Source: Muribaculaceae bacterium Isolate-037 (Harlan) (lineage in GTDB: Bacteria; Bacteroidota; Bacteroidia; Bacteroidales; Muribaculaceae). Taken from it: DNA of 64,000 nucleotides. The position numbers were made by a program, and so were the translations under genes. The stretch's first letter is position 1. Each line of letters opens with the position of its first letter. Location: the NCBI GenBank assembly GCA_003762615.1, contig RIAZ01000011.1, positions 1 to 64,000 of the forward strand, given 5' to 3'. This document shows positions 15,851-40,058 of the stretch, piece after piece. The notes under the pieces were generated by a model. The model saw only the letters and a program-made list of their open reading frames with translations, did not search any database and had not been told where the DNA came from.

Positions 15851-16613
15851 ATATCAACACAATTCAAACTTACATAAATTTACAACTAACACGAAGGTAA
15901 CATATTCGTCGAAAAAAATTAGCCTGATTTATAATTGAAAGACAGTTGCAAATATACTACTTTTACCTTTTCGTTGGAATTATTTTTTGCCTTCAAAGAA
16001 AAAAACAAGCCCAATTATCCGCTTCCCTCTTTTTTATACCCATTCAAAATCGTCTTTGCTTTCGACCTTGTTCAAAGATATACATGAACAGGTCAATAAA
16101 TATGTCAGTCAGTTCATGTATATATAGTACATGACTTCTGACTTGTTTTGTCTTTAGACCGAATCCGATTTCATTGTCATCGTAGAGACCCGTCTTTAAT
16201 CAAGTCAGAATATTAGTCAGTCAGTTCGTGTATATATAACACGACTTTCTGACTTGTTTCGTATAAGGTCTTTTTTCTTTTTTTGAAGGCCTCTTCTTTT
16301 TTTGTTCCACGTTGTGTTAATGATGTTCCATTTATAGAGCTTTCAGCATTTACGATTCCCACGAAAGTTTGTTTTCGTGTGCAAAGTTACGGAGAGAGAA
16401 CGTCCACCAAGAAGCGTTCCCTATCTTCAGCAAAATTTGACGGAAACTTTCCGCAATCACAGATTCCGGCATTTCATAAAATTTTATCCTTGATTTCTTG
16501 TCTATCGTCCTTTCACTCTCCGTCTGAAACGGCACATGAAAACAATCCTTTCAGGAGAAGTCGAAAGACCTTGAGTAAAGGGGAACAAGTTTAACAAATT
16601 AAAGTTTAAGAAT
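15851..16613. other. Non-coding left end of the second mobile element, with palindromic repeats and a leader
   Basis: No gene is supported here. The left part (to about 16300) is very AT-rich and contains a leftward TACCTTCG box (15892-15899 on the complement) and two related palindromes. The right part is the leader of the gene at 16614. Its parts are a leftward promoter (-7 box TAACTTTG as the complement of 16382-16389, with TTG as the complement of 16408-16410, 18 bp apart) and a hairpin with arms AAAATTT (16432-16438) and AAATTTT (16479-16485). A GGGGAAC stretch lies 30-40 bases before the ATG. Confidence 0.6.
16104..16261. repeat. Two copies of a ~45-bp palindromic repeat
   Basis: Copies at 16104-16148 and 16216-16259 share GTCAGTCAGTTC at the left and CTGACTTGTTT at the right around a TATATATA centre. 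Each can fold: CATGTA/TACATG in copy 1 becomes CGTGT/ACACG in copy 2, a compensatory change. Copy 2 is also enclosed by CAAGTCAGAA (16201-16210) and TTCTGACTTG (16247-16256), a perfect 10-bp inverted repeat. Next to the junction, these could be recombinase-binding sites of the element end. Confidence 0.7.
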
Positions 16614-17195
16614 ATGCCTAACTGGTGCTGCACAGCGTATGCGATAGAGGGCGACGCAAAGGAATTACAAAGCCTCTATGATTTGATGAACAAGCTACAG
16701 GAGTCAAAAGACCCTTCTGTTCCGAATGGATTTGGGACTACTTGGTTGGGATGTCTTGTTGATGCCCTTGGCGAAAAATGGGAAGATGTATCTTGCCGTG
16801 GAAGCTGGAACGATTTGGAGTTTGACGGCAGAGTGCTTACTTTCAATACAGAAACAGCATGGGCTCCATGCAATGAGACGCTCGATGTGGTATGTAGGAA
16901 ATATCCGGCATTAAACTATCTATATCGGTCGGAGGAACCAGGAATGGCTCTGTATTATACCAATGACGATGAAGGCAGATACTTTCCTGATAGATTTGTT
17001 GTCGAAGTGTGCATTTCAAAAAAGGAATACTACACCGAGTATTTTACAGATTTACAGAGTGTATATGAGTGGTTGGAGGAAATCTGCGATATGCAAGTCC
17101 AGTCAAAGCTGGATGTGGATGCGATTGTAGGACAATGGAGAAAAAAATATGCACATGCCCACTGCTATATCCACGAGTACAAAATTTCCGCTTGA
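16614..17195 (+). CDS. YubB/Api92-like ferredoxin-fold domain protein
   Basis: The 193-aa product starts MPNWCCTAYAIEGDAKEL, the typical opening of the YubB (Api92) ferredoxin-like family found on plasmids and phages. WAPC followed by E and a FVVEVCISKKEYYTEYF strand region later in the protein fit that family too. The role of these proteins is unknown; they are often part of anti-defence or plasmid maintenance regions. The gene stands alone between two long non-coding modules and is the first gene of the second element. Confidence 0.7.
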   Translation: MPNWCCTAYAIEGDAKELQSLYDLMNKLQESKDPSVPNGFGTTWLGCLVDALGEKWEDVSCRGSWNDLEFDGRVLTFNTETAWAPCNETLDVVCRKYPALNYLYRSEEPGMALYYTNDDEGRYFPDRFVVEVCISKKEYYTEYFTDLQSVYEWLEEICDMQVQSKLDVDAIVGQWRKKYAHAHCYIHEYKISA

Positions 17196-17636
17196 CCGAT
17201 TTTTCAAAGGCATAGATAAGGCTGAAAATTCCTAATTTATAATGCTGAAATCCGTATTGGCTTAATTCCGATACGGATTTTTAAAATTCAGTCTGCCGAC
17301 AGTTGCGCCCTGTTATAAGGTACAAGGATTTGTTCAAAACCTTTGCAAGTTATCCGGTTATAATCTTTTTTTCTTTTATAAGGCTTCCAGCAGCTTTTTC
17401 TCTGCGCCCTGTGGAGGATTCTATTTTTCTACGAAGGTAAATCGGCTTTCCCAATCATGTCAATGCCGACTGTAGTCGCGAGTGAACCGTAAAATCTTCC
17501 TCTTCTCCGTCGAGCGTATTTTTCGTATCAGCCTTGCAGGATTGCCCCAGCCTCCTTCTTTATTGCAGAAAAATAAATCCCAACGGTCGCAAACAGGCCG
17601 AATAAAGGGAAATAATAACAACCAAATAAAAAGACA
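17196..17636. promoter_or_regulatory. Non-coding leader module
   Basis: It contains CCTGTTATA and CCGGTTATA motifs near 17310-17365. A leftward -7 box TACCTTCG (complement of 17432-17439) has TTG 21 bp away. A hairpin has arms AAAAT (17491-17495) and ATTTT (17518-17522) around CTTCCTC...GAGCGT. A GGGAAATAA stretch precedes the ATG at 17637. The same order of parts recurs before most genes up to 40 kb. Just after the 17195 stop, a CCGTATTGG...CCGATACGG inverted repeat at 17251-17277 is followed by TTTTT and may be a terminator. Confidence 0.55.
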
Positions 17637-18113
17637 ATGGGCAAATACGATTTTATCAAGACAGGCAACCTGCTTTATTGGAATGACCCCGACAACGGCA
17701 TATCCAGTGGGGGCTACAAAGTTATTTCCGTTCCTGAAGAAGTGTATGAGGACAGCATCATTTTGATTGCAAGCGACCACTCTGAAGCGGAGGTACTGGC
17801 TTCCGAATTATCACCGATACCCCCGACAAGAAGCCATAAGGAGGAATTTCTGAAATGGAGAGAGAAACAAGAAGCGGACGGTACTGCGTTTTACAATAGG
17901 CTTTCAGAAGTTATTGCTACCGAGATTGATTTGGAAGTCGGCGACATGGTGGCGTTCACAAATGATTACGGCGTTGTATTCGGTCCGTATGAAATACTCG
18001 CTTTCGGCAAACCTTGGAACGGTGACAGATGTGTGTACCTTGACAGTGATGCCTATTGGTTTGCAGACCGTCCGAACCAACTCACACTGATGAGCAAGGG
18101 GACTTCAGAATAA
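17637..18113 (+). CDS. Hypothetical protein, 158 aa
   Basis: No family is recognised. The protein is acidic and globular, starting MGKYDFIKTGNLLYWNDPDN and containing a central helix (KEEFLKWREKQEADGTAFYNRLSE). A beta-rich C-terminal half follows (EVGDMVAFTNDYGVVFGPYEIL) that resembles a small SH3-like barrel. It stands alone with its own structured leader upstream and another non-coding module downstream. Codon use matches the surrounding accessory genes. Confidence 0.6.
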   Translation: MGKYDFIKTGNLLYWNDPDNGISSGGYKVISVPEEVYEDSIILIASDHSEAEVLASELSPIPPTRSHKEEFLKWREKQEADGTAFYNRLSEVIATEIDLEVGDMVAFTNDYGVVFGPYEILAFGKPWNGDRCVYLDSDAYWFADRPNQLTLMSKGTSE

Positions 18114-18503
18114 CAGACCTAAGCATAGACCATCCGCTACAATACGGGTGGTCTTATACCTCAAGACCATATCGGGCTATACCTTTTATAGTTCCGCTTC
18201 ATGCTTATCCTATTTTATCCATCCAATATCCCTGTATAAAGCCGGATCTGCTTGCCGTGACATCGCCACGGTTTGTTTTCCTGTGCAAAGTTACGGTGGA
18301 CGAACACCGTTCAAGTATCGCCGTGCTACCTCTGATGAAATTTGACGGAAACTTTCCGCAATCACAGATTCCGGCTTTTCATAAAATTTCATTCCCGGTT
18401 CCTTGCCCTCTGTTCTTGCCTCCCCCGTTTGAGCCGCACGTAAAACAAACCCTTACGGTGAAGTCAGAAGGCTTCAAAGGCAGGGAAATTAAATAATTGA
18501 AAT
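18114..18503. promoter_or_regulatory. Non-coding leader module, close copy of the 16.4-kb leader
   Basis: A leftward -7 box TAACTTTG (complement of 18286-18293) with TTG 18 bp away precedes a hairpin whose arms are TGAAATTT (18336-18343) and AAATTTCA (18384-18391). The block between and around the arms matches 16436-16484 in 48 of 49 bases. In the stem the 16.4-kb copy has A-T where this one has G-C, a compensatory change. TTATA motifs lie at 18150-18235, and GGGAAATTAAA precedes the ATG at 18504. Confidence 0.6.
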
Positions 18504-18932
18504 ATGAAAGTGATATGTACGAAATGCGGAGGTATGAATGTGGCGTGTGAAGCCATGATTAACCCCAATGACAAATCTTTCCGTAATTATACGGACGAAG
18601 CATTTATTTACGGATGGTGTGATGACTGCGGCAACGGTGTTGTCCTCTCTGATGTCGATGAAATCAAAGAGGATATTGACAAACTCTATGCAAATTTTTG
18701 TGCCGAGCATGGAACAGAGCCGCTTTATGCGATGTGTGAAATCGTGTGGAAAGATGAAAAATTTATTGAGCCGTCCCCTGTAACCGTAAAGTTGTCCTCA
18801 GATGCGGACGATGCCACTGATGAAAAGATATTCTTCTATTGCGATGGTATCGAAGACCTTAAATCTCTCGCTGTATTTGGAGTGGAAGATTTCGTCATTA
18901 CATCCTGCAACTATTTAACCAATGAATTATAA
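18504..18932 (+). CDS. Small zinc-ribbon-like protein
   Basis: The 142-aa protein has two CxxC pairs (CTKC at residues 5-8 and CDDC at 39-42), a plain zinc-ribbon arrangement. An acidic C-terminal part follows with no recognisable catalytic motif. Its stop overlaps the start of the next gene by 11 bp, so the two are likely translated together. Function unknown; such ribbons often bind nucleic acid or protein partners. Confidence 0.65.
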   Translation: MKVICTKCGGMNVACEAMINPNDKSFRNYTDEAFIYGWCDDCGNGVVLSDVDEIKEDIDKLYANFCAEHGTEPLYAMCEIVWKDEKFIEPSPVTVKLSSDADDATDEKIFFYCDGIEDLKSLAVFGVEDFVITSCNYLTNEL

Positions 18933-19632
18933 CAAGATGAATAAGTACAACTGGAAAGGCTATGATTTTATAGGGACAGTACCCGAATTTGCAGAAAAGT
19001 TCGGGTACTGCAAGACCCCTACTTTTGTCAATGCAGTAAAAAGAGTTCCACGGCACAAATACAACTGCATGGACGCAGTGGAGCAAAGAGCCTATGAGGA
19101 AAAGCGCAAACGTGCGAAGCGAGCCTACTGCATCTATATGAACGAAGAGATGACTGACAGCTACATCATCACGAAAGAGGAGTATATGGCAACAAACCTC
19201 CCAATAAAGGAGAAGCGTCACGAACCATTCTTGCTCTCGTATCGTAACAGGGTATTGCCATATAACTTCATCGGAAACAGCCATGATGAAATCCCTGTCA
19301 AATCCGCCATGGTGAAATACTCTGCCGAAGCTGTGAAATTCGCCGAACAACTTTTGCTTGCCGCAGGATATTTCAACGGAAGCGACCCTGTGGAAAAGCC
19401 ATCGGTAAAGGTAAACTACACTTCGCTATACCTGACTTATGCCAACGGCATCAGCATTACATTTGATTCCGAACGGAACCATGACGGAGTGGGCAACTGC
19501 CATCTGGAGGTTATAGACTTTAACGGAGAAAGGATTTACAACGGCTGGCGGAGATTAAGCAGCGTCGATGAAATCCTACACTATACCACCATAAACAAGG
19601 ACAGCAAAGACGCCTCTTGCTATTTGGGGTGA
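18922..19632 (+). CDS. Hypothetical protein, 236 aa
   Basis: No family is recognised. The start at 18922 overlaps the preceding gene by 11 bp; an alternative ATG at 18937 would remove the overlap. The N-terminal third is basic and helical (EQRAYEEKRKRAKRAY). The C-terminal third is beta-rich (VNYTSLYLTYANGISITFDSERN). A short GC-rich hairpin with GGCAGGGAAGCCCCTGCC at about 19642-19660 follows and may end transcription. Confidence 0.6.
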   Translation: MNYNKMNKYNWKGYDFIGTVPEFAEKFGYCKTPTFVNAVKRVPRHKYNCMDAVEQRAYEEKRKRAKRAYCIYMNEEMTDSYIITKEEYMATNLPIKEKRHEPFLLSYRNRVLPYNFIGNSHDEIPVKSAMVKYSAEAVKFAEQLLLAAGYFNGSDPVEKPSVKVNYTSLYLTYANGISITFDSERNHDGVGNCHLEVIDFNGERIYNGWRRLSSVDEILHYTTINKDSKDASCYLG

Positions 19633-20045
19633 CAATGACGGACAGGCAGGGAAGCCCCTGCCTGTTTTCTTAAATCATCCGTTGCCATTTCTCTTGTATT
19701 CCACGGAGTTCACCTGTGGTTATATCTACGATTTCCTGTTATAGCCATACATGACAGTCCATTTATATAGTCAACTCCGTCCTTTTCTATTTTGGATTTA
19801 TCAATTCCTGCTTGTCGGTCGGGGTTACAGAATATTACGGTGCAAAGGTAGAAGCCGCTGTCAGATCGTCAAGGTCTGGCACACGGTGTTTGTCACTGCA
19901 AGATGGAGACTCCGCTCTATCTTTCCCTCCAAAACCTTGCCTTGTCTGCCATGCGCCACCTTTACAGGCACTGTAATATTCAAAATCCCGACGCACAAGC
20001 GAAAAGGCAGGGATAAAAACCAATAACTTTAACACAGACAAAACC
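19633..20045. promoter_or_regulatory. Non-coding leader module
   Basis: A terminator-like hairpin lies just after 19632. TTATA motifs follow: GTGGTTATA, CCTGTTATA and CCATTTATA between about 19710 and 19775. A leftward promoter has -7 TACCTTTG (complement of 19843-19850) and TTG 19 bp away. A stem pairs AAGATGGAG (19900-19908) with CTCTATCTT (19915-19923), and GGGATAAA precedes the ATG at 20046. Confidence 0.55.
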
Positions 20046-20222: not shown

Positions 20223-21014
20223 CACGTGCCAATGTATGGATGCGGCAATCCGGGCAACATGCTCGGATTGTACCGTCCTGGTATTTCCTGTTATATTTCT
20301 TTTTTGAAGGCCTCCCTTTATATTCCACCAGATACGGTTACTGTAAGATTTCCTTTTTTATCTTACAATCCCTTTGTTAATGGCAGACTGTTTCGCCGAT
20401 GCAGTCAGTCCGTGCCCTCCTTGGAGACACGCCTGGAGCGTGCATTTCCTTTTTGGGCTTGCTCTTTCTGCTTTTGCCGGATTTATTCTGTCAGCGGTTA
20501 GCCGGATGCGGCAAAGACTGCGGCACTTCATCCGTCATCTTTCCAATCATCCATTATCCGTATGGACATCGACCATGGGCCAGCCATTCTTGAGAAGCGG
20601 TCAATACGTCCACGTACAGCCGCACTCACATACACAGCCACGAGGCGGTCTCTTTGCTGTCGGTACTGCGTCAAAATGAAAGGAACGTGCAATATTCGGT
20701 TTCCGAGTTTATGCGGAAGTCGCCATGACGTACAGCCAACCGGTAAAGTATGGTGTCGCCAAGTCACCACAACAGTGTTACGGCGAGTCATACACACTTA
20801 TTTTTCCTGATGCGAAGTTATGATCATGGCGGAGCTTTGGCTCCTACGGGACGGACATTGCCTTTGACCAACGGCTTTCAACAAATCTTCCTTTTTCTTT
20901 TCACAGGCTCAACAAAAAGAGTATTTGCCGAACCTTCCGCTGGTGCTACCCTATGCCCATGTCATCTTTTTGCATCGTAAAAATTAAATGTTTAACTCTT
21001 TAATACTTAAAGTT
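20223..21014. other. Long non-coding region ending in the ssb leader
   Basis: 792 bp without a convincing gene. CCTGTTATA and CCCTTTATA motifs lie near 20285-20325. The middle part (20340-20760) shows no feature I can name. From 20811 the leader signature appears: a leftward box TAACTTCG (complement of 20814-20821) and a hairpin with CAAAT/ATTTG outer arms (20882-20886 and 20922-20926) around CTTTTT/AAAAAG inner arms. An ATGTTTAACTC stretch lies close to the ssb start. Confidence 0.5.
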
Positions 21015-21413
21015 ATGGCAACTTCAACAAACAACACCAACTCTTTCAACCTCAGTGGCTTCGTAGCCGTCAACGCAAACATCCGCAACTTCGAGAAGAA
21101 CTCGGTTGCCCGTTTCCCCCTCTCCATCAGCCGCACGGAAACCAACGGTGACGAGACCACCCGCAAGTCGGCCCTTGTAAACTGCGAGTGCTGGCGCAAG
21201 TCCGAAGAGGCATCGACCTTCGAGCTTCTCAAGAAAGGCAAGCTCGTCCAGGTTTCAGGCTTCATCCGTCCGGAAGAATGGACATCGGAAGACGGAACCA
21301 AGCACAGCCGCATCGTCTTCGTCGCCACATCCGTCAGCGAACTGTCCACCGAAAAGAAAACCGATGGCAAAAAGCCGGCGAAAGGCAAGACTTCCAAGAA
21401 GAAGGCTGCGTGA
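21015..21413 (+). CDS. ssb: Single-stranded DNA-binding protein, short form
   Basis: The 132-aa protein has an OB-fold core: FNLSGFVAVNANIRNF, ALVNCECWRKSEEASTFELL, and GKLVQVSGFIRPEEWTSEDG. This is typical of the SSB copies on Bacteroidales conjugative elements. The C-terminus is Lys-rich (KKPAKGKTSKKKAA) and lacks the acidic DDIPF-type tail of chromosomal SSB, so it probably does not recruit the usual partners. It likely protects transferred single strands. A strong terminator follows 20 bp downstream, making it a single-gene unit. Confidence 0.85.
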   Translation: MATSTNNTNSFNLSGFVAVNANIRNFEKNSVARFPLSISRTETNGDETTRKSALVNCECWRKSEEASTFELLKKGKLVQVSGFIRPEEWTSEDGTKHSRIVFVATSVSELSTEKKTDGKKPAKGKTSKKKAA

Positions 21414-21462: not shown

Positions 21463-21755
21463 TGCTCACCGGCTGCGGTCAAGCCCTTTATATATTCTGG
21501 CTGTCACCGGTTGTAAATCCCAATCACCAGTTATATCTCATTGTTCATCCGGCGGCCGGTCATCCGTTTTCTGCGGCGAATTTGGAGGTGGCAGGGCAAA
21601 CATCAAGGCACACTCCGTTCTGAAGGCCTTGCCTAATTCCCCTTATGGCCACCATCCCCTCAATGCCGCAAGAAAACAGGAATGGCCGATCCGCAAGCCG
21701 GGCTAAGGCAGGGAAAAGGTCATCCCACAAGTCTAACAGTTAAATTCAAAAGAAA
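21463..21755. promoter_or_regulatory. Non-coding leader module
   Basis: CCCTTTATA and CCAGTTATA motifs occur near 21485-21535. A long-range inverted repeat pairs GTTTTCTGCGGC (about 21567-21578) with GCCGCAAGAAAAC (about 21664-21676). GGCAGGGAAAAGG lies about 40 bases before the ATG at 21756. No leftward promoter as clear as in other modules; GCGAATTTGG near 21577 may be a degenerate one. Confidence 0.4.
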
Positions 21756-22004
21756 ATGGAAAAGAGCATCGAAAAAATCCCGACCTACGCATTGCCTTAT
21801 CTGGTGAATGGCGATGCAAGTAACCTGAACGCTGACGAGATTAAGCAGATTGACGACATCTGCCGCGAACAGGGCATCGAAGTCGTCGTCCCCATCACAG
21901 AAAGCGAAGAAGGAGGCGCAGAACCGTATTTCAGCAGCGTCCCTTTGTTCGGGCAGCCGACCGAAGTGGAGGATTGCATCATTATCTATAAAAATAATGA
22001 TTAG
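21756..22004 (+). CDS. Hypothetical protein, 82 aa
   Basis: A short acidic protein (MEKSIEKIPTYALPYLVNGD start; EPYFSSVPLFGQPTEVEDC near the end). The pattern TYALPYLVNGDAS and a C-terminal VEDCIIIY strand recall a small family common on Bacteroidales plasmids and transposons whose function is unknown. It heads a cluster of three short genes spaced by a few bases, sharing one leader. Confidence 0.6.
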   Translation: MEKSIEKIPTYALPYLVNGDASNLNADEIKQIDDICREQGIEVVVPITESEEGGAEPYFSSVPLFGQPTEVEDCIIIYKNND

Positions 22005-22567: not shown

Positions 22568-23105
22568 TTCGTCAACGCTGGCGAGCCACTGGGACATCCG
22601 ACGCTGCCAGTCACGCTGACACCCTGCATTACGTTCAAGTCCGAGCGGCCTCCGGCACAGGGCGAGCGTGGGCCGGCAGAGTGTGTCATGCTTCCACACA
22701 CAGCCTGTCGGTGACACCCACGGTTCGCTCTTCACCCCGACTTACCCTCCACTCCGGGCTGTCGTGCCTGTGCTACGGCCAGTCCCGTGACCTTCGCCTG
22801 CTTACTCTTATAGCAATTTAGGAGCCTTTTATAATGACGCTTGTCCGACATGGCCGATACTCCCTTTATAATCTTTGGTAACGCTGGCGGATCGCAGGGA
22901 CACCCGATGCTGCCAGTCACGCCGACACCCTGTATTACGTTCAAGTCCGGGCGGTCTCCGTCACAGGGCGAGTGTGGGCCGGCAGAGTGTGTCATGCTTC
23001 CACACACAGCCTGTCAATGACACCCACAGTTCGCTCTTTGCCCCAACTTTACCTTCATTTCGGGATGCGTGCCTATGTTGCAGCAGGTCCCGCGATTTCC
23101 GCCGC
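22568..23105. repeat. Two ~240-bp direct repeats in a non-coding region
   Basis: Copy 1 (about 22568-22812) and copy 2 (about 22877-23105) align along most of their length with scattered, mostly transition-type changes. Shared internal hairpins include CTGGC...GCCAG at the left and GTGTGT...ACACAC around a CATGCTTCC loop. A leftward frame (MCGSMTHSAGP...) is open in both copies, but amino-acid changes dominate, arguing against coding. CCTTTTATA and CCCTTTATA motifs flank both copies. A structured RNA or a protein-binding array is likelier than a gene. Confidence 0.65.
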
Positions 23106-23385
23106 CACCCTTTATAAATACTCACCGCCATTTTTAGAAAATTCTTTTCTGTTCGGAACCGTCACTACCTGTGGTTATCGGCGCGAAGTTCGGCATCCGG
23201 GCTTATATGCCAAGGTTGTACGGAGTTTCTGCGAGATTTTACTGCCGTGCGGTAAAATCATCTTGAAAACCTTGTCCCTAAAGCCTCTTAGATGCCCCTG
23301 TGTTGCGCAGATAACCACCTTGCGGACGGCTCCTGAAGGAGCAGGAAGTAAGGGAAGAAATAAATCTTCAACATTAAGGTCAGAT
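23106..23385. promoter_or_regulatory. Leader of the methylase-helicase gene
   Basis: A degenerate leftward -7 box (complement of 23184-23191) has TTG 19 bp away (complement of 23211-23213). A hairpin pairs GATTTTAC (23235-23242) with GTAAAATC (23252-23259). The shared TCATCTTGAAAACCTTG block follows at 23258, then GGGAAGAAATAAA before the ATG at 23386. The whole unit aligns with the leader at 28.67-28.87 kb. Confidence 0.6.
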
Positions 23386-26300
23386 ATGAGATACAACAAG
23401 AAAAAGGCATTAGCCGACAATGTGAACGCCATTGAGACAGCGTTGGCGGTACACAGTCAGGGCAGACAAGCCACTGACAGCGAGAAAAAGACATTAGCCC
23501 TTTATTCGGGTTTCGGAGGTATCAAAGAGGTGCTGAACATCGGCACGGATAAACCCATGCCCGACGGCATGGCAGAGCCTATGATGCGGTTACAGGAACT
23601 CTTGCAGAAATTCGCAGACGGCAAGGAAGCGGAATATAAGGCATTGGTTGACGGAATAAAGGCATCCGTGCTGACTGCTTTTTACACTCCGCAATTCATC
23701 ATTGACACCGTGGCAGCGCAGATACACACCATCTTCAGCGACAACGGTATGCGGATGCGTTCTTTTCTTGAGCCAAGCGCAGGGATTGGTGGCTTTTTGA
23801 AAACAGCCATGCAGGGAGCAAACACATACGCTTTTGAGAAAGACCCCATGACAGGACTTATCCTGTCGCTTCTCAATGACAAGACAACTACCGTCACGGC
23901 AGGGTTTGAGACTATCGGGGAGCAAGACCTACAGGACAAGGGCTTTGATGTCATTGCCTCCAACATTCCGTTTGGCAATTTCCGTGTGTTCGATGCCGAC
24001 ATGTGGAAAAAGGGCGGCATATACGAGCAATCCACCAAGACCATACACAACTACTTTTTTATAAAGTCAATGGAACTGCTCAATGAGGGCGGCATACTTG
24101 CCTTTGTGACCTCAAGGGGCATAGCTGACACTCCGGGCAACAAATTTGTTCGTGAGTATCTTGTGAACCATGCCGACCTAATCACGGCATTACGGCTTCC
24201 CGACAATATCTTCATGGAAACAGGCGGCATCGAGGTAGGCACAGACCTGTTGGTATTCCAGAAGCACACAAGGAAAACAACCCTGTCACAGCGTGAGAGG
24301 CTGTTTGTTCAGACCGCCAAAGAAAACGGAGCGGACGGCATAGTAACGGAATATGCCAACAAACTTTTCGCACAGCCCAAGACCGCACTCGCCACTGACA
24401 GCCGTATCGCCATGAACCAGTTTGGGAAATATGTAAGGAAATACCAGTGGCAGGGCGAGGAAGCGATGATGCGGCAATACTTCTCCGCATTGCTCAAAAT
24501 GGATTTCGACCGTTTCTTCCATAAGAGCCTTTTCCTTAATGACGGACAGGACGCACAGGGGCAAATGTCGCTTTTTGACCTTTTCGGTGAGGAAATCACA
24601 CCGCAACCGAAAGACAGGGGCAAACGTGCATATACCGACAAAGTGGCATGGTGGATGAAAGACGGAGCAATGGTGATGTTTGAGGAACAGCTCGGCAACC
24701 TCAAGATGCGCAAGTCAAGCCGTTATGCTGATGTTGCGGTGGATTTTGTGCCTATGGCTGACATTGAAGCGGCGAAAGAAAGGGCAAATGACTATTTCCC
24801 CATCCGTGAAACCTATTTTGAACTGTCATACAAAGAGCGTGAGAAAGAACAGGAATACCCCGAATTGAGGGAACGTCTTAATGCGCTATATGACAAGTTC
24901 ACAGCCAAGTGGGGGCTGTTTCACGACAACGACAACAAGGAATTTATCATGCTTGACAGCCTCGGCATCGAGGTATTCACCATTGAAATGCAGTCGGGTG
25001 ACACCATCGGCAAGGCTGACATCATGCGTGAGCCTGTGGCATTCAAGAAGATAGATGCCATGACCGTGCTTTCCCCCATGGAAGCGTTGGCGACAAGCCT
25101 CAATTTTTACGGCAAGGTGGATATGCCGTTTATCGCCCGAAGCTCGGACAGAAGCGAGACGGATGCCATAAATGACCTAAAGGGCGAGATATTCTATAAC
25201 CCCATATCGGGAGAATGGGAGAACAAAGGGAAATTCATTGCCGGGAATGTGATTGCAAAACACAAGGAAATCATGTCATTGCTGCAGGAACTTGACGGAA
25301 ACGAAAAGGAGTATGCGGAAACCTCGCTGAAAGCATTGGAGGAAGCGACCCCCGAAGCAATCCCCTATGAGGAACTGGATATAAATATGGGTGAGCGTTG
25401 GATTGACTCAAGCCTGTATGCCGCTTTCGCAAAAGAACTTTTCAAGACCGATACAACGGTTATGTATTTCGATGTGAACGACACCTATGTTGTTTCCTTG
25501 CAGGGATATTCAGCTGTAGCCTATCACACCTATTCTGTCCGCAACTATAACGGTGAAGACTTGTTTGTCCATGCCCTGCAGGACACCGTGCCCGAAATCA
25601 CAAAAGAGGTGTACCGCAAAGGTGACAAGGTGCGTGTGCCGGACGAGGAAGCCATACAGGAAGCGGCTACCAAGATACAGGAAATCCGCAGCAAGTTCAA
25701 TGCATGGCTTGACAGCCAGCCCATAGAGGTGCGTGATAACCTTGTGAGAGCCTACAACGAGCGGTTTAACTGTTATGTCCGTCCGCATTATGACGGCTCG
25801 GCGCAGACATTCCCCGGTCTCTCGTTTGAACAGTTCCCTTACGATGACCTCTATTCCTCACAAAAGGATGCTATCTGGATGATTAAGCAGAACGGCGGCG
25901 GCATCTGCTGGCATGAGGTCGGTACAGGAAAGACCATGATAATGTGCGTAGCCGCATACGAAATGAAACGTCTCGGACTTGTTCGCAAGCCTATCATTAT
26001 AGGGTTGAAAGCCAACGTGCATGAAATAGCCGACACTTTCAGAAAGGCTTATCCGTCAGCGAAGATACTCTATCCGGGCAAAGAGGATTTCACTCCAGCC
26101 AACCGTAAAGAGGTGTTCTCAAAAATCCAAAACAATAACTGGGACTGCATCATTCTCACACACGACCAGTTTGCCAAGATACCGCAGTCAGATGAAACGA
26201 TGTTTGAGATATTTTCGGAAGAACTGCAGGATGTCGAGCGTAGCCTTGAGGTATTGGAGGAAAGCACCATGCGCTACCGAAGTGGCAGGATGCAGAGCGG

Positions 26301-28398: not shown

Positions 28399-28873
28399 TT
28401 ACAATATAATTTCTGACCTTTCCCTCTGTTTGGTTGTGATAACCGGGCAGAGGGTTTCTTCTGTATAGAAAAAGATTGTCTCGGATGCTTCTCGGACTAT
28501 AACCGGCATACCTATTATACATATCAGATACCCTCTTATCCACTGTCCACCGGTCCCTTTTTTACATAGTGGGAACCACCTGATCCTACTTGCCTTTTGT
28601 ATGTAGAAGCACCTGTTATACTCATCTTTTTAGAGTATCTTTCCTTGAAAGCCGTCCGACCGTGGTTTACGGCGCGAAGTTCGGCATCCGGGAGCGATGT
28701 GCAAGGTCAGGCTTTGTTTCAGCGAGATTTTGCAGCATGGTGAAAAATCATCTTGAAAACCTTGCCTTTCGCCCCTTGACGATGCCATTGTTATGCGCAG
28801 ATAAACCTCTTGCGGAAGGCTTCGGAAGGAAGATTCCAAGATAGGGAAATAAAAATTAAAACAAAATTCAGCG
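28399..28873. promoter_or_regulatory. Non-coding leader module, homologous to the methylase leader
   Basis: Just after the stop, an ACCTTTCCCTCTG...CAGAGGGTTTCTTC inverted repeat (about 28416-28461) looks like a terminator. CCTATTATA and CCTGTTATA motifs follow at about 28511-28522 and 28612-28620. A leftward box (complement of 28675-28682) has TTG 19 bp away. A hairpin has GATTTT (28726-28731) and AAAATC (28744-28749), then the same TCATCTTGAAAACCTTG block, and GGGAAATAAAA before the ATG at 28874. Confidence 0.6.
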
Positions 28874-30645: not shown

Positions 30646-30655
30646 TTTTTTGATG

Positions 30656-30663
30656 CAAAGTTA
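30656..30663 (-). promoter_or_regulatory. -7 box of the CAT promoter
   Basis: TAACTTTG on the complement matches TAnnTTTG and lies just upstream of the CAT start. No clear -33 TTTG is seen at the usual distance. Confidence 0.5.
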
Positions 30664-30701
30664 CGCTGACATTTTTGCATGGGATAGAAGAAAAGAGACA
30701 T

Positions 30702-31484: not shown

Positions 31485-31519
31485 GACATACGTGTTTTGT
31501 ATGTGAATACTGTTTCCCT

Positions 31520-32542: not shown

Positions 32543-32590
32543 TGATCTAAATGGAATTATCTTTATAGAAAAAAGAGTCCTTTATGTTGT

Positions 32591-33250: not shown

Positions 33251-33260
33251 ATATTCTACT

Positions 33261-33605
33261 TTACTGCTTTTTTATTGCATGACATTTGCGTAAGGTCATC
33301 TCATCGGCAAATGCCTGTTCACCACGTTCACGGATATAGTTGATACATGCAGGACGGTCTGACCCGAACAAGAGACCTAAAACATTTCCTATAGGATTGG
33401 AGAAGATCCTGCAATCTGTAACATCCTTATCGCACTCAGCACAGGTGTGAAAACCGCAGCCTTTGGCACATGTCCTGATTTTGCACCATGAAGTTTTCTC
33501 ATTAAGGTGGCAACCGGGGCATTGTTCCGTAAGATACTTACGACATGCGCCACAGTACAGCCCGCACGCAGCTATCAGTTGTTTGTTTGCTTCAATCTTT
33601 TTCAC
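33261..33605 (-). CDS. DUF3795 cysteine-rich protein
   Basis: The 114-aa product has the DUF3795 pattern: CGLYCGAC near residue 14, then CPGCHLNEKTSWCKIRTCAKGCGFHTCAECD. In all it has some 13 cysteines, which probably bind zinc or an iron-sulfur cluster. Function unknown. It is the first gene of the leftward set. A leftward TAACTTTG box at the complement of 33869-33876, about 265 bp upstream, could serve it. Confidence 0.8.
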   Translation of the reverse strand: MKKIEANKQLIAACGLYCGACRKYLTEQCPGCHLNEKTSWCKIRTCAKGCGFHTCAECDKDVTDCRIFSNPIGNVLGLLFGSDRPACINYIRERGEQAFADEMTLRKCHAIKKQ

Positions 33606-34263
33606 TACTATTCACATGTGCGCCCCATAGTCCAATAAGGCTGATTATTAAATGCAAAAGCGCGGACCGCAATACCACTTCTAATTTGGAGGTCGTAGGA
33701 AACCTTGCATACAGATGTAGTAATAGCAGCCCACGCTATAGCGTGAGAACCACCATGCCATCTTAGTATGCAATTTGAAAATTTCCTACGTTTCCAAATA
33801 CTTGATGAGCATAACGCTTCTTATCTTTTCGTATGTTTCGGACAAGAGTTGCCTCTATCCGGGTGCAAAGTTACTCATTTTTTGCGGCAATCTCTTATAA
33901 TTTAATGGCTTTCTGCGTTTGGGCTGTAAGATTTTGCCTCACATCGTATTCTCGCACTCCCCAAAATCCAGTTATATGAAATCAGAACACGCTATGTTCT
34001 GAAACACCTCTTCTATATTGTCTTTTTTGTGTTCGTTCGGTTGGCCGGCCTCAGATGATTGTTTTACCGCGAAGTTAAGTCCGTCCGGCAACCGTCAAGG
34101 CCATACCTGTCGGTGACTTCCGAAAATCTTCCTCCTGCGGAGCGTATTTTCGTGTCAGCCTTGCCTTTATGCCTGCCGTTAGCTTCGTGTTTGCAGTAAA
34201 AAATTCCTCTAAGTCCGGAACACACCGGAAGAAAGGGAAAAGTAAACTTAAAAAATATCAGTT
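33606..34263. other. Non-coding region: cargo promoter side and rightward leader module
   Basis: The left part has a 14-bp perfect palindrome CACGCTATAGCGTG (33732-33745) and a leftward box TAACTTTG (complement of 33869-33876). CAGAACA/TGTTCTG form a hairpin (33983-34001), and CCAGTTATA lies nearby. The right part is the leader of the gene at 34264. It has a leftward box TAACTTCG (complement of 34070-34077) with TTG 18 bp away. The clearest copy of the conserved hairpin follows: CGAAAAT (34121-34127) with ATTTTCG (34146-34152) around CTTCCTCC...GGAG. AAAGGGAAAAG precedes the ATG. Confidence 0.6.
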
Positions 34264-35186: not shown

Positions 35187-35208
35187 TAACCATCAAACAA
35201 AAAGTATT

Positions 35209-35490
35209 ATGACATTCGATTACAACAAGGAACACAAGACATCCATGTCGCTGGTGCTTGAGAACGGTATTTCAGTAGAGGGCGAGTTTATCGACCTCAG
35301 AATAACAGTCGATACCCTGCCAAAAGGGAAGCAGTGGTATCAGATACGTCACAGTGACGATGATGGCTCAGAACCCGCATCGCTAAAAAGGGGGTGCGTG
35401 GTTGTAAACTTCTTCGGCACTTTCATCTGCGACCCGATAGACGAAATGAAAGACGGTGACGAACTGGAGATAACAGAATGGGGTTGGTAA
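35209..35490 (+). CDS. Hypothetical protein, 93 aa
   Basis: A beta-rich small protein (SLVLENGISVEGEFIDLRITV; KRGCVVVNFFGTFICD; GDELEITEWGW) consistent with a small barrel. Twenty-two bp separate it from the previous gene. No family recognised. Confidence 0.55.
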   Translation: MTFDYNKEHKTSMSLVLENGISVEGEFIDLRITVDTLPKGKQWYQIRHSDDDGSEPASLKRGCVVVNFFGTFICDPIDEMKDGDELEITEWGW

Positions 35491-35527
35491 ATGACCGCCC
35501 CTGTATATAACTTAAAATCATGGATAT

Positions 35528-36001: not shown

Positions 36002-36393
36002 CCTTTTTCCCTTTGCCTTCCCCACCGAGGCAAAGGGAGCCTGCTTTTTTATAACGCTGAAGCGCAACCCCTTTTTAATGCGTAACAGTCCATACCTGTT
36101 TTATCTTCCGGTTTTATCCGTCGTACCTGCCAGTTATAGTTCTCTGCCATGATTTCATACATACCGCCTTACCTCTACGGATTATTTCTGCAAAGGTAGC
36201 GGCAGGCTTTGTCAAACGGCAAATCCCGGACGGCAAGCCTTATGGGAAATCTTCCTCCATTTGCATGGAGCGTATTTCTCATCCTTGATTTGCCTTTTTG
36301 CCGCCATGCCCCTTTGCCGGCAGAAAAATCCCTCGCGGCAAGCCGGACAGCTTCCGAAAAAAGGGAAATGACAAAAATTAAACATATCATATT
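36002..36393. promoter_or_regulatory. Non-coding leader module with terminator
   Basis: A likely terminator (CCTTTGCCT with AGGCAAAGG, about 36010-36037) is followed by TTATA-type motifs to 36140. A leftward promoter has -7 TACCTTTG (complement of 36191-36198) with TTTG 21 bp away (complement of 36220-36223), the best match to consensus in the series. A hairpin pairs CTCCAT (36255-36260) with ATGGAG (36265-36270) inside GAAAT/ATTTC outer arms (36246-36250, 36274-36278). GGGAAATGAC precedes the ATG at 36394. Confidence 0.65.
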
Positions 36394-36966
36394 ATGGCAA
36401 AGGTAACTGATGAAAAAGTCAAGAGACAGCTGGAGAAAAAGACTACGTTCTTCCTTAAATACTTCCCCGTGCGCATAAAGAACGTGGGCGAGGACGCTGT
36501 GGAAGCACGCAAATTGGTCTGGGCGTTCAAGGATGCGGAAGACGGAGCATGTGAGAAAGTGGCACGAATGACTTCCGACTACATAAACAAGGAGTATGGA
36601 GGTAGAGCCAAAGACATCGTATTTGTCTGTGTTCCTGCAAGCACGCAGGAGCAGAACGAAAACCGCTACCGAAAGTTCTGTGAGAGGGTCAACGAAATGA
36701 CAGGCATCCGCAACGGCTTTCCGCACGTGAGAATATCGTGTGACAGACTTGCAGTGCATGAGCACCGCCACGACAAGACTGTCCGCATGGCTCAAGTGAT
36801 AGAGTTTGATGATGATTATTTCTACGGAAAGGATGTCGTGGTCATGGATGACATCATCACCACCGGCATGAGTTACGCATTGTTCGCCAACCAACTTGAA
36901 GTGTTCGGGGCAAACGTATTGGGCGGCATCTTCCTTGGACGCACACATTACCGATATGGGAAATAA
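36394..36966 (+). CDS. ComF-like phosphoribosyltransferase
   Basis: The 190-aa protein carries the PRPP-binding loop VVVMDDIITTGMSY near residues 148-161, typical of type I phosphoribosyltransferases. An upstream VFVCVPASTQEQNENRYRKF segment is like that of ComF/amidophosphoribosyltransferase relatives. The substrate is unknown. It overlaps the SLOG-domain gene by 11 bp, so the two are translated together and probably act on one nucleotide-related pathway. Its own structured leader precedes it. Confidence 0.8.
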   Translation: MAKVTDEKVKRQLEKKTTFFLKYFPVRIKNVGEDAVEARKLVWAFKDAEDGACEKVARMTSDYINKEYGGRAKDIVFVCVPASTQEQNENRYRKFCERVNEMTGIRNGFPHVRISCDRLAVHEHRHDKTVRMAQVIEFDDDYFYGKDVVVMDDIITTGMSYALFANQLEVFGANVLGGIFLGRTHYRYGK

Positions 36967-37471
36967 CATAAATCCAACTGCCATTAACAGGCGGTGTTCC
37001 GCAGCCTTTACGGGACACCGCTCATTTCCCCATGGAGGAACGGCAAACGTAAAGGCTGCCTTGACGGAGCTTATCAGAGATTGGCACGGAGAAGGTATCA
37101 CCAATTATATGTGCGGCATGGCATTGGGCTTCGACCTTATGGCGGCAGAATGTGTGCTGCAGGCAAAAGCGGATTTCAACGACATCACGCTTACAGCCGT
37201 TATACCATTCCGCGACCAGTGCGGGATGTGGAATTGGAGTGACCGCCAACGCTACCATGCCATTTTACAACAGGCGGATTTTCACATATTACTGAGCGAG
37301 GTGTATTACAAAGGCTGTTTGCTTGTGCGAAATGATTTCATGCTCAAACATGCGAGCCGTATTGTTGCCTACTATGACGGGCGACGTCGTGGTGGCACAT
37401 ACTATACCTGCAACAAGGCTGGAGTCATGAACATTCCTGTCCTTAACTTGTATGACCATTTGTCGGGATGA
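36956..37471 (+). CDS. SLOG/DUF1273 (YpsA-like) family protein
   Basis: From ATG 36956 the 171-aa product shows AAFTGHRSF near residue 16, CGMALGFDLMAAE near 53, and a C-terminal RIVAYYDGRRRGGTYYT box. This is the pattern of the YpsA-type SLOG Rossmann domain, which binds nucleotide or ADP-ribose-like ligands. It overlaps the phosphoribosyltransferase by 11 bp. SLOG proteins act as sensors or generators of nucleotide signals in conflict systems, so the pair could be a small defence or counter-defence unit. That is inference. Confidence 0.8.
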   Translation: MGNNINPTAINRRCSAAFTGHRSFPHGGTANVKAALTELIRDWHGEGITNYMCGMALGFDLMAAECVLQAKADFNDITLTAVIPFRDQCGMWNWSDRQRYHAILQQADFHILLSEVYYKGCLLVRNDFMLKHASRIVAYYDGRRRGGTYYTCNKAGVMNIPVLNLYDHLSG

Positions 37472-37902
37472 CACACTAAGGATTGTCCGTCCGTGGAGAG
37501 GGAATAAACCTCTTCACGGAAAGCGCAAGGCTGCCCTCTTATATCCCGGCCGGTCATGCAGGTCGTCTTAACCTGTTTTACCGCATTTACCTTGTTTACA
37601 ACCTCTCGGTGTTCTCCTGCTTATATCATTCACATTCTCTGGTCTTGCCCTGGTTCTTTCCCTTCGTCACCGGTTTGGTTTTATCAGATGCGAAGTTCGG
37701 CCGTCCCGCTTGATCCGGCGGCTTGAAGTGCATTTCTTGCAAAATCTTCCTCCAGTGGAGAGTATTTGGCAAGAAAAGCCGTCGTATGAAGCTGATAAGA
37801 CAGCCGTGTGTTGCATCTGTAAAACTCCAAAGCGGTTCCGGGAAAAAGGGACTGAAGAAAGGGGAAAATAAACATTCAATAATAACCCATAAATTCAAAA
37901 AA
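37472..37902. promoter_or_regulatory. Non-coding leader module of the parB-like gene
   Basis: A GTCCGTGGAGAGGGAAT...CTTCACGGA inverted repeat lies after the stop. TTATA motifs occur at about 37538 and 37620. A leftward-type box sits at the complement of 37691-37698, but no TTG is at the expected distance. The hairpin CTTGCAAAAT (37736-37745) with ATTTGGCAAG (37764-37773) encloses CTTCCTCC...GGAG. AAAGGGGAAAATAAAC precedes the ATG at 37903. Confidence 0.55.
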
Positions 37903-39615
37903 ATGGAAGCAACATTAAATCAGACAGCAGTAAAGGACATCACAATGGTTGCAATCTCTGCAATCCGTCCTAATGGTTTCAACCCACGCAAGCACTTTGA
38001 TGAAGTGAGTTTGAACGAACTCGCAGAAAGTATTCGTCAGCAAGGAATACTACAGCCTGTCACCGTGCGCCCCATAGCAGACAGCAACGACTATGAACTT
38101 GTGTTCGGTGAGCGCAGATACCGTGCTGCAACGATTGTCGGCATGCAGGAAATCCCTGCCATAATCAATGACCTTTCCGATGAAGAAGCCGAGGAAATCG
38201 CCATTACCGAGAACCTCCAGCGCAAAGATGTGACACCCATGGAAGAAGCCAATGCCTACCAACGGCTCATGGAAAGCGGACGGCACGACCTTTCTTCCCT
38301 TGCTGTGCAGTTCGGCAAGAGTGAGGCTTATATCCGTACAAGACTGAAATTCGCATCGCTTATTCCCGAAATCGCCGCCTTGTTGGAAACGGACGAAATC
38401 ACGGTCAGCGTGGCAAGCGAAATCTGCCGTTACGGTGAGGACATACAGCGTGAGGTGTACGAACAGCACCTGAAAGAAGATGTGACATATAGCAGTTGGC
38501 GAGGGCAGAAAGCCTCTGAAATCGCAAGGAGCATTGAACGGCAGTACACCGCAGACCTTGACCGTTATTCTTTTGACAAGACCCTGTGCCTGTCATGCCC
38601 CCACAACACAAACAACATGTCGCTTTTCTGTGAGGGTTGTGGAAAATGTGCAAATCGCACATGCCTTGCCGAAATGAACGCATCGTACCTTGTGGAAAAA
38701 ACCCTGCAGGTATTGGCGGAGAACCCCACCGCAACGCTCGGACATACCGACTATGACTACAACCTTATCGCTGTGGAGCGTCTTATGGCTATGGGACATG
38801 AGGTGGAGAGTGCCATGCCATACGGTACGGCTTATCCCCGACAGCCCGAAGCACCTGAAAAAGAGGACTACGACAACGAGGAAGCCTATGAAACGGCATG
38901 CAGTGATTACGAGCAGGAACAGAGCGACTATAGGGAAAGATGCGCTGAAATACACCGCCAAAGCGAGAACGGCGAAATATCGCTCTACGTGAAAATAGGA
39001 AGCAACAACATAACGCTGTGCTATGTAAAGAAGAACAACACCGCAGACGATACGACACAAGGACAGCCACTTTCTCCTGTGGAAAAGTTGGAGAAACAGG
39101 ACAAGCGAAACAAGGAAATCGCCCTTGAAAAGACTATCGAGGACACCAAGAAGCAAATCCTTAACATAGATGTGGCAGAAGCCAAGTTCGGAGCGGACGA
39201 GGACAGAATGGTTTATTTCTTTTTGCTGTCAAGCCTACGGAGAGAGAACTTTGCCCTGTTAGGTATATCCGAAGAACACTCCCCATACCTCAATGACGAG
39301 GACAAGATGAACATCATCGCCAATCTGACGGCAAAGACAAAGGCTGTTATCCGCAGGGATTATCTGATAGCGCAGTTCAAAGACGCATACAGGAACAATG
39401 CCACAGCAGACCTTATGCTTGACTTCGCACGTAAGCACATGCCGAATGAACTTGCTGAAATTGAGGACGGCTATAACCAAATCTATGAGAAGCGACACCA
39501 ACGCATTGAGGAAAGGAAAGCCGCTATCGTGGCTAAGGAAAAGCCAACGGACGAAAATGACGATGCAGCAGAGGCATCCTCCGAAGATGCGAAGCCGGAA
39601 GAAGCTGCGGCATAA
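37903..39615 (+). CDS. ParB/Srx-fold DNA-binding protein
   Basis: ATG 37903 gives 570 residues. The N-terminal ParB domain has SIRQQGILQPVTVRP and the nucleotide-binding GERRYRA (69-75), then an HTH region (LAVQFGKSEAYIRTRLKFASL). A Cys-rich patch follows (CLSCPHN...CEGCGKCANRTC) that likely binds zinc, then an acidic region and a Glu/Ala-rich end. No ParA partner is nearby, so it may regulate or process DNA of the element and not partition it. ParB proteins of this type are CTP-dependent, which the box allows. Confidence 0.85.
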   Translation: MEATLNQTAVKDITMVAISAIRPNGFNPRKHFDEVSLNELAESIRQQGILQPVTVRPIADSNDYELVFGERRYRAATIVGMQEIPAIINDLSDEEAEEIAITENLQRKDVTPMEEANAYQRLMESGRHDLSSLAVQFGKSEAYIRTRLKFASLIPEIAALLETDEITVSVASEICRYGEDIQREVYEQHLKEDVTYSSWRGQKASEIARSIERQYTADLDRYSFDKTLCLSCPHNTNNMSLFCEGCGKCANRTCLAEMNASYLVEKTLQVLAENPTATLGHTDYDYNLIAVERLMAMGHEVESAMPYGTAYPRQPEAPEKEDYDNEEAYETACSDYEQEQSDYRERCAEIHRQSENGEISLYVKIGSNNITLCYVKKNNTADDTTQGQPLSPVEKLEKQDKRNKEIALEKTIEDTKKQILNIDVAEAKFGADEDRMVYFFLLSSLRRENFALLGISEEHSPYLNDEDKMNIIANLTAKTKAVIRRDYLIAQFKDAYRNNATADLMLDFARKHMPNELAEIEDGYNQIYEKRHQRIEERKAAIVAKEKPTDENDDAAEASSEDAKPEEAAA

Positions 39616-40058
39616 TGAGCAACAGGCAGGGTGGAGAAATCCGTCCTGCCTGTATGCTTAACATACCGTCAGACAACAACGGGCGGCGACACTTCCTGTT
39701 ATACTAATTCTCGATTCATCCTCCAGTTATAAACTTTTATACTAATCCTTTTGGGCTTCCTCCATTTATACACGCTGGTGTTGTATCATATCAACCGTCC
39801 TGTCGGCTCTGTTTTTCTCTTGCAAAGTTACTGCGAGGTGAATTTGGCCCAAGTACCGCCATACTATCCAGACTTTATTTTGCGGAAGCCTTCCTCGATT
39901 TGTAGCCAAATCGGGTGTTCCATAAAATAAAGTCCGGATTTCTTGTGCATATTCTCCTGTCTTCGCAGTGATGGGCGCAAGTAAAAATCAAATCCCGACC
40001 GGACGGAACGAAGCTCCTGATGTGAGGGGAAATAAAAATTATTCATAAACACTTAAAC
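39616..40058. promoter_or_regulatory. Non-coding leader module with clear TTATA array
   Basis: A CAGGCAGG...CCTGCCTG inverted repeat (about 39624-39653) follows parB. Four TTATA motifs follow: CCTGTTATA (39695-39703), CCAGTTATA (39723-39731), ACTTTTATA (39733-39741) and CCATTTATA (39762-39770). A leftward promoter has -7 TAACTTTG (complement of 39823-39830) and TTG 19 bp away. Hairpins are GACTTTATTTT (39871-39881) with AAAATAAAGTC (39924-39934), and CGATTTG with CAAATCG inside. GGGGAAATAAAA precedes the ATG at 40059. Confidence 0.65.

What the first reader, a model, noticed from the sequence alone, without database searches (positions are those of the whole stretch)
16382..39852. About ten leftward promoters placed before rightward genes
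On the complement, TAnnTTyG boxes occur at 16382, 17432, 18286, 19843, 20814, 23184, 28675, 34070, 36191, 37691 and 39823. Most have a TTG box 18-21 bp upstream in the right direction. The 23184, 28675 and 37691 boxes are degenerate (GAACTTCG), and 37691 has no partner TTG. Each lies roughly 150-250 bp before a rightward gene and points away from it, into the TTATA array and the 3' end of the previous gene. Every module would thus make an antisense or separate small RNA. This repeated layout over more than 20 kb looks like a coordinated control system that I have not seen described.
Basis: partly seen in the sequence, partly recalled or inferred. Interest (0 to 1): 0.78.

Follow-up and report, generated by a model that had tools for sequence, protein, structure and literature searches.

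The report
Hairpin promoters on transferred single-stranded DNA
The backward-pointing promoters sit in one arm of long DNA hairpins that would turn them round toward the gene while the mobile element is single-stranded, so they most likely switch on genes as a gut-bacterium element enters a new cell.

Summary
In detail: all 11 boxes are present, 9 have a TTG partner, and a 12th module lies at 21577. On folded single-stranded minus-strand DNA, RNA polymerase would copy the gene-side arm and run rightward into the gene. This is the layout of a single-strand promoter (Frpo/ssi of plasmid F), here with Bacteroidota boxes and no significant sequence similarity to the F and R64 regions tested.

Support: folding energies, covariation (97 compensated cells against 37 expected), strand-specific recurrence in relatives, SSB, ParB and methylase genes behind the modules, and modules upstream of the relaxase in 20 of 22 loci.

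Weak points: no transcript data; nick and transferred strand inferred; 51 further modules lie 32-111 kb on the other side of a relaxase; the wobble test is borderline in the non-redundant set; the -7 box is clearly unpaired in only 7 of 12 modules. In double-stranded DNA the boxes may still fire leftward. The TTATA array is real but unexplained. Novelty: new variant of a known kind.

The parts
16353..16563 (-). module 1, class B hairpin (strand named is the one thought to fold); box 16382-16389, outer stem 16353-16382 / 16532-16563
   Evidence: z -3.4
17403..17591 (-). module 2, class A hairpin; box 17432-17439, largely paired in the predicted fold
   Evidence: z -3.3; R1 E 2e-31
18261..18460 (-). 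module 3, class B hairpin; box 18286-18293; the minimum-energy fold with flanks did not show the full hairpin
   Evidence: z -2.6
19813..19997 (-). module 4, hairpin; box 19843-19850, largely paired in the predicted fold; no class A tip
   Evidence: z -4.7; R1 E 6e-16
20785..20998 (-). module 5, hairpin before ssb; box 20813-20820; no TTG partner
   Evidence: z -3.0; R1 E 0.0018
21548..21706 (-). module 6, not in the finding: hairpin with degenerate box 21577-21584 (CGAATTTG) before the DUF6926 gene; bounds approximate
   Evidence: score 66.8, third of 660 relaxed sites; not found by R1
23155..23333 (-). module 7, hairpin before the methylase-helicase gene; box 23184-23191; no class A tip
   Evidence: (z -4.5)
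28649..28822 (-). module 8, hairpin; box 28675-28682; no class A tip
   Evidence: (z -3.3)
34045..34218 (-). module 9, class A hairpin; box 34070-34077, largely paired in the predicted fold; only module with strict rightward boxes before the gene
   Evidence: (z -3.9)
36164..36346 (-). module 10, class A hairpin; box 36191-36198, largely paired in the predicted fold
   Evidence: (z -5.1)
37663..37842 (-). module 11, class A hairpin before parB; box 37691-37698; no TTG partner
   Evidence: z -6.7; R1 E 9e-37
39795..40006 (-). module 12, class B hairpin; box 39823-39830
   Evidence: z -8.0
16614..17195 (+). gene 1, DUF1281_C-like, just below the Pfam cut-off
17637..18113 (+). gene 2, unknown
18504..19632 (+). 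genes behind module 3 (CGGC-like below cut-off; unknown)
21015..21413 (+). single-stranded DNA-binding protein; likely start 21015 (the 20988 ATG lies in the stem)
21756..22004 (+). DUF6926 protein
23386..28398 (+). N-6 DNA methylase / helicase, 1670 aa
34264..36001 (+). small genes incl. LPD28 protein 35209-35490
36394..37471 (+). phosphoribosyltransferase-like (below cut-off) and YspA/SLOG family (PF06908) genes
37903..39615 (+). ParB-type protein (ParB_N, HTH_ParB)
40059..40436 (+). gene 12, unknown
46413..46451 (-). putative oriT: core GGGAAGCATAATACCCC 46413-46429 and adjacent hairpin; putative nick on the minus strand between the complements of 46419 and 46418
   Evidence: nick inferred
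46530..48053 (+). MobV-family relaxase

Best explanation
Each module is a single-strand DNA promoter. Shown by sequence: twelve intergenic hairpins of about 160-215 nt, about 180-240 bp before a rightward gene; an outer stem of about 25 bp that reaches the Bacteroidota -7 box; the box itself a weakly paired spot (mostly or wholly open in 7 of 12, partly or largely paired in the rest); the -33 TTG, where present, 18-21 bp further toward the tip and in paired stem. Inferred: during conjugation the minus strand enters the recipient 5' end first from an oriT near 46.4 kb. Each module folds; its 3' arm is the non-template strand with the boxes; the recipient's RNA polymerase starts in the outer stem and copies the 5' arm and then the single-stranded gene, rightward. 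SSB, ParB-like, methylase and other establishment proteins are thus made before the second strand. Once the DNA is double-stranded the hairpin is gone and the same box faces away, so the genes fall silent. Some of the RNAs may also prime second-strand synthesis, as known for Frpo.
For: Energies below dinucleotide shuffles in 11 of 11 modules tested (z -2.6 to -8.0, mean -4.4; 52 control windows mean -0.31, 8 of them below -2). Stem at the box: 11 of 11 z 2.7-6.6, 1 of 35 other strict boxes as high, ordinary promoters 30656 and 33866 about -1. Both-strand scan, parameters set after seeing the modules: the 11 are within the top 12 of 177 sites. Relatives: 78 plus against 2 minus hits in 37 loci, plus hits in 31 of 37 (67 against 0 at the stricter cut); 67 control loci 17 against 11 (6 against 3). 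Covariation, 32 modules: 85.1% paired against 69.5 +/- 1.1, 97 compensated cells against 37.3 +/- 5.3, slid controls much lower. Box less paired than its flank (mean 0.38-0.62 at the 6 core positions, against 0.84), TTG paired 0.90. TTG partner at the fixed offset in 33 of 50. No strict rightward box before 11 of 12 genes. SSB, ParB, N6-methylase and a DUF1281-like gene, kinds also found in F or R64 leading regions. Same-strand modules within 30 kb upstream of MobV in 20 of 22 loci: 56 upstream, 7 downstream, 0 on the other strand among listed rows. Putative oriT with a hairpin 8 nt before the putative nick read on the minus strand.
Against: No RNA data. RNAalifold found no consensus structure on the plus strand of A3, and with DNA parameters the minus-strand consensus of one subfamily lacks the long stem. 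In one search the number of further pair types is no higher than in shuffles (291 of 500 reach it). The -7 box is not a general bubble: of 50 modules 16 have 4 or more of 6 core bases unpaired, 16 have 2-3, 18 have 0-1; in 19 of 50 a 5-mer of the box has its complement nearby in the right arm. The plus-strand fold is more stable in 4 of 11 modules. The wobble asymmetry favouring the minus strand is 36 against 7 in 50 modules but 22 against 7, P 0.055, in 43 non-redundant ones. The nick is unproven; a second conserved hairpin lies on the other side of the core; and in the MobV prototype pMV158 the transferred strand is the coding strand of mobM (PMC5863519), which would give the opposite strand here. 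ArdC lies on the minus strand right of the relaxase. 51 same-strand modules lie 32-111 kb downstream of a MobV, not leading in a simple sense. The two MobV loci without upstream modules are G331:C68 and G344:C67, the latter with only 5 kb of contig. 22 of 108 model hits have no scorable box. The F yardstick was inconclusive.
Confidence: 0.72

Rival explanations
1. One reading: ordinary double-strand promoters that make leftward antisense or small RNAs from each module; the hairpin is incidental.
For: Boxes and spacing fit a Bacteroidota promoter (consensus recalled); a strand-specific TTATA array lies downstream of them.
Against: Does not explain the complementarity of upstream to downstream sequence or its covariation. 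A leftward RNA would lack the right arm.
Confidence: 0.13
2. Single-strand initiation sites for complementary-strand synthesis: the folded strand is read mainly to make a primer RNA, or to recruit a primase at the conserved tip, not to express genes.
For: In mobilizable elements L153, L155, L165 and L169 a module lies upstream of mob genes with a convergent helix-turn-helix gene next to it (gene names by eye). Frpo is known for both roles (title of Masai and Arai 1997, seen in reference lists).
Against: In the window each of 12 hairpins is tied to its own gene at about 180-240 bp, more than one circle should need for priming.
Confidence: 0.2
3. Structured RNA leaders (riboswitch- or attenuator-like) in rightward transcripts that start further left.
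For: Hairpins lie in the 5' region of genes; the plus-strand fold is about as stable, and more so in 4 of 11.
Against: No Rfam match; mismatches lean to those tolerated on the minus strand; the minus-strand consensus fold is better in both subfamilies tested; the conserved box would have no role.
Confidence: 0.05
4. Recombination hairpins (attC-like cassette boundaries), the genes being cassettes.
For: One module per gene or operon; module sets differ between elements; some modules in small elements lie beside an integrase (by eye).
Against: A conserved box with a TTG at fixed offset and a fixed distance to the gene start are not expected of recombination sites. No excised or shuffled cassette was looked for.
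Confidence: 0.03

Closest known systems
Frpo / ssi single-strand promoters of enterobacterial conjugative plasmids (F, ColIb-P9)
   Same: Hairpin before leading genes, promoter boxes reconstituted in the stem, active while the DNA is single-stranded; leading genes read from the transferred strand (PMC9849209, PMC11541004, passages). Shared gene kinds: SSB, ParB, methylase, DUF1281.
   Different: Here the boxes are Bacteroidota -33/-7, class A has a new conserved tip, and there are 12 copies in one element; no significant similarity to the F or R64 ssb upstream regions (best E 0.057). 'Bacteroid' does not occur in the main text of PMC11541004.
EGeRS1 sequences of pLS20-family plasmids (Bacillus)
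   Same: Repeated 400-600 bp sequences with inverted repeats, one before each establishment operon, without a strong sigma-A promoter in the one tested (PMC8708921, passages).
   Different: Its authors think single-strand promoters highly unlikely there: no promoter in the fold, and an argument from the nicked strand that I saw only in part. Here the boxes are in the fold.
ICEs of gut Bacteroidales, including the T6SS-bearing GA1/GA2 kinds
   Same: One relative carries a DUF5458 gene (recalled as a T6SS protein), then ssb, parA, parB and traK/M/N, with three modules.
   Different: GA1/GA2 papers were seen only as a search listing; I do not know whether they describe these sequences.

Membership tests
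Single-strand DNA promoter (Frpo/ssi type) | long imperfect hairpin before leading-type genes | tested here: met
   hairpin; genes
Single-strand DNA promoter (Frpo/ssi type) | host RNA polymerase promoter boxes inside the hairpin, oriented from tip to base on the folded strand | tested here: met
   box consensus recalled, papers seen as a listing only
Single-strand DNA promoter (Frpo/ssi type) | lies in the leading region; transferred strand is the template of the gene | tested here: inconclusive
   upstream of MobV in 20 of 22 loci, oriT geometry; nick not proven, pMV158 precedent opposite, far modules
Single-strand DNA promoter (Frpo/ssi type) | sequence homology to Frpo | tested here: not met
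   ssb upstream regions of F and R64 against the 12 modules, best E 0.057; so it may work like Frpo but is not claimed as a homologue
Single-strand DNA promoter (Frpo/ssi type) | RNA synthesis from the single strand; expression only in new recipients | not testable with these tools
   needs bench work
Bacteroidota housekeeping promoter, leftward | TAnnTTyG with TTG 18-21 bp upstream | tested here: met
   strict box in 8 of 12, TTG in 10 of 12, both in 7 of 12
Bacteroidota housekeeping promoter, leftward | leftward RNA made | not testable with these tools
   needs RNA-seq
Known RNA family (Rfam) | match above gathering score | tested here: not met
   0 matches in the window

The most novel reading that the evidence does not exclude
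Bacteroidales mobile elements of several kinds (ICEs, conjugative plasmids, small mobilizable elements) share a modular single-strand start signal, in class A with a new tip recognised by a common host factor. It is a promoter whose direction depends on strandedness: into the gene while the DNA is single-stranded, away from it once double-stranded, so the same box first drives and then opposes each establishment gene. In the smallest elements it serves as the origin of second-strand synthesis.
Probability: 0.3. Interest if true: 0.88.

Novelty: new variant of a known kind. Interest (0 to 1): 0.78.

Why it matters
The single-strand promoters in the papers I read passages of were found by similarity to Frpo or by -35/-10 consensus; these would escape both. 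If right, this explains how gut Bacteroidales elements express establishment genes on entry, gives a computable marker for such regions in a dominant human gut order, and points to many unstudied candidate establishment or anti-defence genes behind the modules. Twelve copies in one element with covarying stems also form a natural experiment on what a single-strand promoter needs.

Tried and rejected
Rfam search of the window: no family match. RNAalifold on the plus-strand alignment A3: no structure; minus strand of two subfamilies better. The first alignment of the 11 window modules (A1) was out of register at the boxes and was not used. Search for a pMV158-like nick sequence GTGTGTTA: 0 in the window. 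NCBIfam on relaxase- and tra-side proteins: most without a family, so the transfer genes of the window are named only in part. F plasmid as a geometric control: a long hairpin before ssb but no sigma70 pair on its minus strand by my scan.

One search corrected the first. For the second, held only loci that I had picked because they had modules; one search takes all 22 MobV loci of E below 1e-90 in genomes searched with R1. The third was wrong: the three partial-match loci that I folded (L167-L169) have long hairpins. Confidence went from 0.75 to 0.72 for this.

Rows dropped: L060 and one L066 hit were left out of the 50-module counts as doubtful. In one search, 22 of 108 hits without a scorable box and those below the score or identity cut were left out. 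In one search, five MobV hits in G336 and G337 were left out because these genomes were not searched with R1; rows were listed only to about E 1.5e-5; some loci are near-identical copies (for example G331:C18 and G340:C55), and a far module may count for two relaxases.
Full report
What was checked. The window is from Palleniella muris NM73_A23: a locus of that strain encodes the window's ParB at 100%. They are not chance: 8 strict leftward boxes fall 190-240 bp before the 12 genes where 0.40 are expected (bins set after seeing the data).

What the boxes sit in. On the plus strand, the 25-30 bases left of each box are complementary to a stretch 120-159 bases to the right (88 in module 21577), just before the gene. 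A stem test that compares each site with 40 shuffles of its own right flank gives z 2.7-6.6 for 11 of 11 modules; of 35 other strict boxes in the window one reaches this, and two ordinary promoters of leftward genes (30656, 33866) give about -1. A scan of both strands, with parameters set after seeing the modules, ranks the 11 within the top 12 of 177 sites; the twelfth is the other arm of one of them. Minus-strand folding energies are below dinucleotide shuffles in 11 of 11 (module 21577 was not in that test). Module 18286 shows the hairpin in the stem test but not in the minimum-energy fold with flanks.

State of the boxes. In the predicted minus-strand folds the outer flank of the box is paired (mean probability 0.84 over 50 modules), the box core less so (0.38-0.62), and the TTG partner is paired (0.90, n 33). 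Six of 12 window modules have the whole 6-base core open and one more has 5 of 6; one has 3 of 6 and four (17432, 19843, 34070, 36191) are largely paired, partly by a slipped match. Over 50 modules 16 have 4 or more core bases open, 16 have 2-3 and 18 have 0-1. So the box is a weak spot, not always a bubble; Frpo is described as a fold that reconstitutes its boxes (PMC9849209).

Relatives. A protein search with the ParB behind module 37691 gave 37 further loci that I took as carriers of related elements, in Bacteroides, Parabacteroides, Phocaeicola, Mediterranea, Muribaculaceae, Prevotella, Leyella and others (L042-L078). The scan finds 78 modules on the strand of parB and 2 on the other, with plus hits in 31 of 37 loci (67 and 0 at the stricter cut); 67 control loci give 17 and 11 (6 and 3). 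Many loci are near copies: 89 modules with the window's reduce to 52, of which 50 were kept. In their first 12 stem positions 464 of 600 pairs are Watson-Crick against 343 +/- 8 shuffled. On an alignment of 32 modules the named structure has 85.1% of cells paired against 69.5 +/- 1.1 and 97 compensated cells against 37.3 +/- 5.3; slid versions are far lower, but the number of further pair types is not above shuffles. The structure was derived from these sequences, which favours it over the slid versions. A covariance model (R1) finds 76 places in 45 chosen sources; in the loci oriented by parB 62 of 63 rows are on its strand, and 7 control loci give none. Over 295 genomes of the order 35 match, the window's own among them, in 29 of 184 genera; over 296 genomes of the phylum 8 match: the window's own, one of the same order, five of a single genus of the same class and one of the same phylum only. 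Twenty distant places were folded; most show one long hairpin, and 15 have a scorable box. A Bacteroides uniformis plasmid with tra genes has its best scan hit before a DUF2958 / N-6 methylase pair, though R1 finds it only at E 0.048.

Two classes. Class A has a tip of consensus AAAATCTTCCTC - loop - GAGCGTATTT in 29 of 32 aligned modules, with covarying pairs around an unpaired part; 19843, 23184 and 28675 lack it. Class B (for example 16382, 18286, 39823) has another tip, seen by eye, and is not covered by R1.

Which strand folds. Only on the minus strand is the box on the non-template side of a promoter that leads out of the hairpin into the gene. Mismatches lean to A.C on the plus strand, that is G.T on the minus strand: 36 against 7 in 50 modules, shuffles 52 against 28; in 43 non-redundant modules it is 22 against 7, P 0.055. 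Consensus folds of two subfamilies are better on the minus strand, but with DNA parameters one of them lacks the long stem, and the plus strand of the whole alignment gave none. In single folds the minus strand is more stable in 7 of 11. I take this as suggestive.

Where they lie. The genes behind the modules include SSB, a ParB-like protein, a methylase-helicase and a weak DUF1281 match. F and R64 leading regions hold SSB, ParB, methylase and antirestriction genes, and R64 a DUF1281 gene; F ParB and the window's ParB are 27% identical over 184 aligned positions, E 7e-13. The relaxase is MobV at 46530. Upstream of MobV a core GGGnAGCnTAATACCCC with an adjacent hairpin is present in 18 of 18 aligned rows (21 sequences less 3 near-duplicates; a few rows are still alike, and L200 departs from the core). 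Read on the minus strand this hairpin lies 8 nt before a putative nick, the spacing described for pMV158 (PMC5863519, passages); this gives minus as the transferred strand and the module region as leading. Against it: another hairpin lies on the other side of the core in most rows, and in pMV158 the transferred strand is the coding strand of the relaxase gene, which would argue the reverse. Of 22 MobV loci in genomes searched with R1, 20 have same-strand modules within 30 kb upstream: 56 upstream, 7 downstream, none on the other strand among listed rows. A further 51 same-strand modules, with parB in many elements, lie 32-111 kb downstream; I cannot explain these by simple early entry.

Mechanism. 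Shown: hairpin, boxes, covariation, strand bias, position relative to the relaxase. Inferred: transfer of the minus strand, folding in the recipient, start of transcription in the outer stem, silence after second-strand synthesis. In four small mobilizable elements (L153, L155, L165, L169; gene names by eye) a module lies upstream of mob genes with a convergent helix-turn-helix gene next to it; there a primer RNA is more likely than gene expression.

Literature. PMC11541004 and PMC9849209 (passages) describe Frpo; the former searched by BLAST with five known sequences and by -35/-10 and UP-element consensus, and 'Bacteroid' does not occur in its main text. Searches listed no paper whose title or abstract start describes single-strand promoters in Bacteroidota; the library lacks most subscription papers, so this is weak evidence of absence. 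PMC8708921 (passages) describes EGeRS1, a comparable repeated sequence in Bacillus plasmids whose authors think single-strand promoters highly unlikely.

Verdict. Best reading: an array of single-strand promoters of Bacteroidota type, like Frpo in action, not shown to be its homologue.

Noticed in passing
window 15900-39800, left of the modules: Strand-specific array of CNNTTATA words, 69 against 5 in equal lengths of downstream sequence over 50 modules; function unknown.
   Followed up: partly
window 22574-22761 and 22880-23067: Direct repeat of 188 nt, 87% identical, in apparently non-coding DNA before module 23184.
   Followed up: no
window 29660-33900: Block of leftward genes (acetyltransferase-, AraC- and esterase-like, by eye), with ordinary leftward boxes at 30656 and 33866, apparently inserted between two module units.
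   Followed up: no
window 50396-58440, minus strand: ArdC, peptidoglycan-hydrolase and ArdC-N/MutS-like genes on the opposite strand, right of the relaxase; no minus-strand hairpin there among the top 24 rows of the relaxed scan.
   Followed up: partly
window 46413-46451: Conserved core plus hairpin upstream of MobV relaxase genes in 18 of 18 aligned rows: putative oriT.
   Followed up: partly
L153, L155, L165, L169: Modules in small mobilizable elements, upstream of mob genes, with a convergent helix-turn-helix gene next to them (by eye).
   Followed up: partly
window 49929-49956: Sub-threshold match to abiF RNA (31.3 bits, gathering score 37).
   Followed up: no
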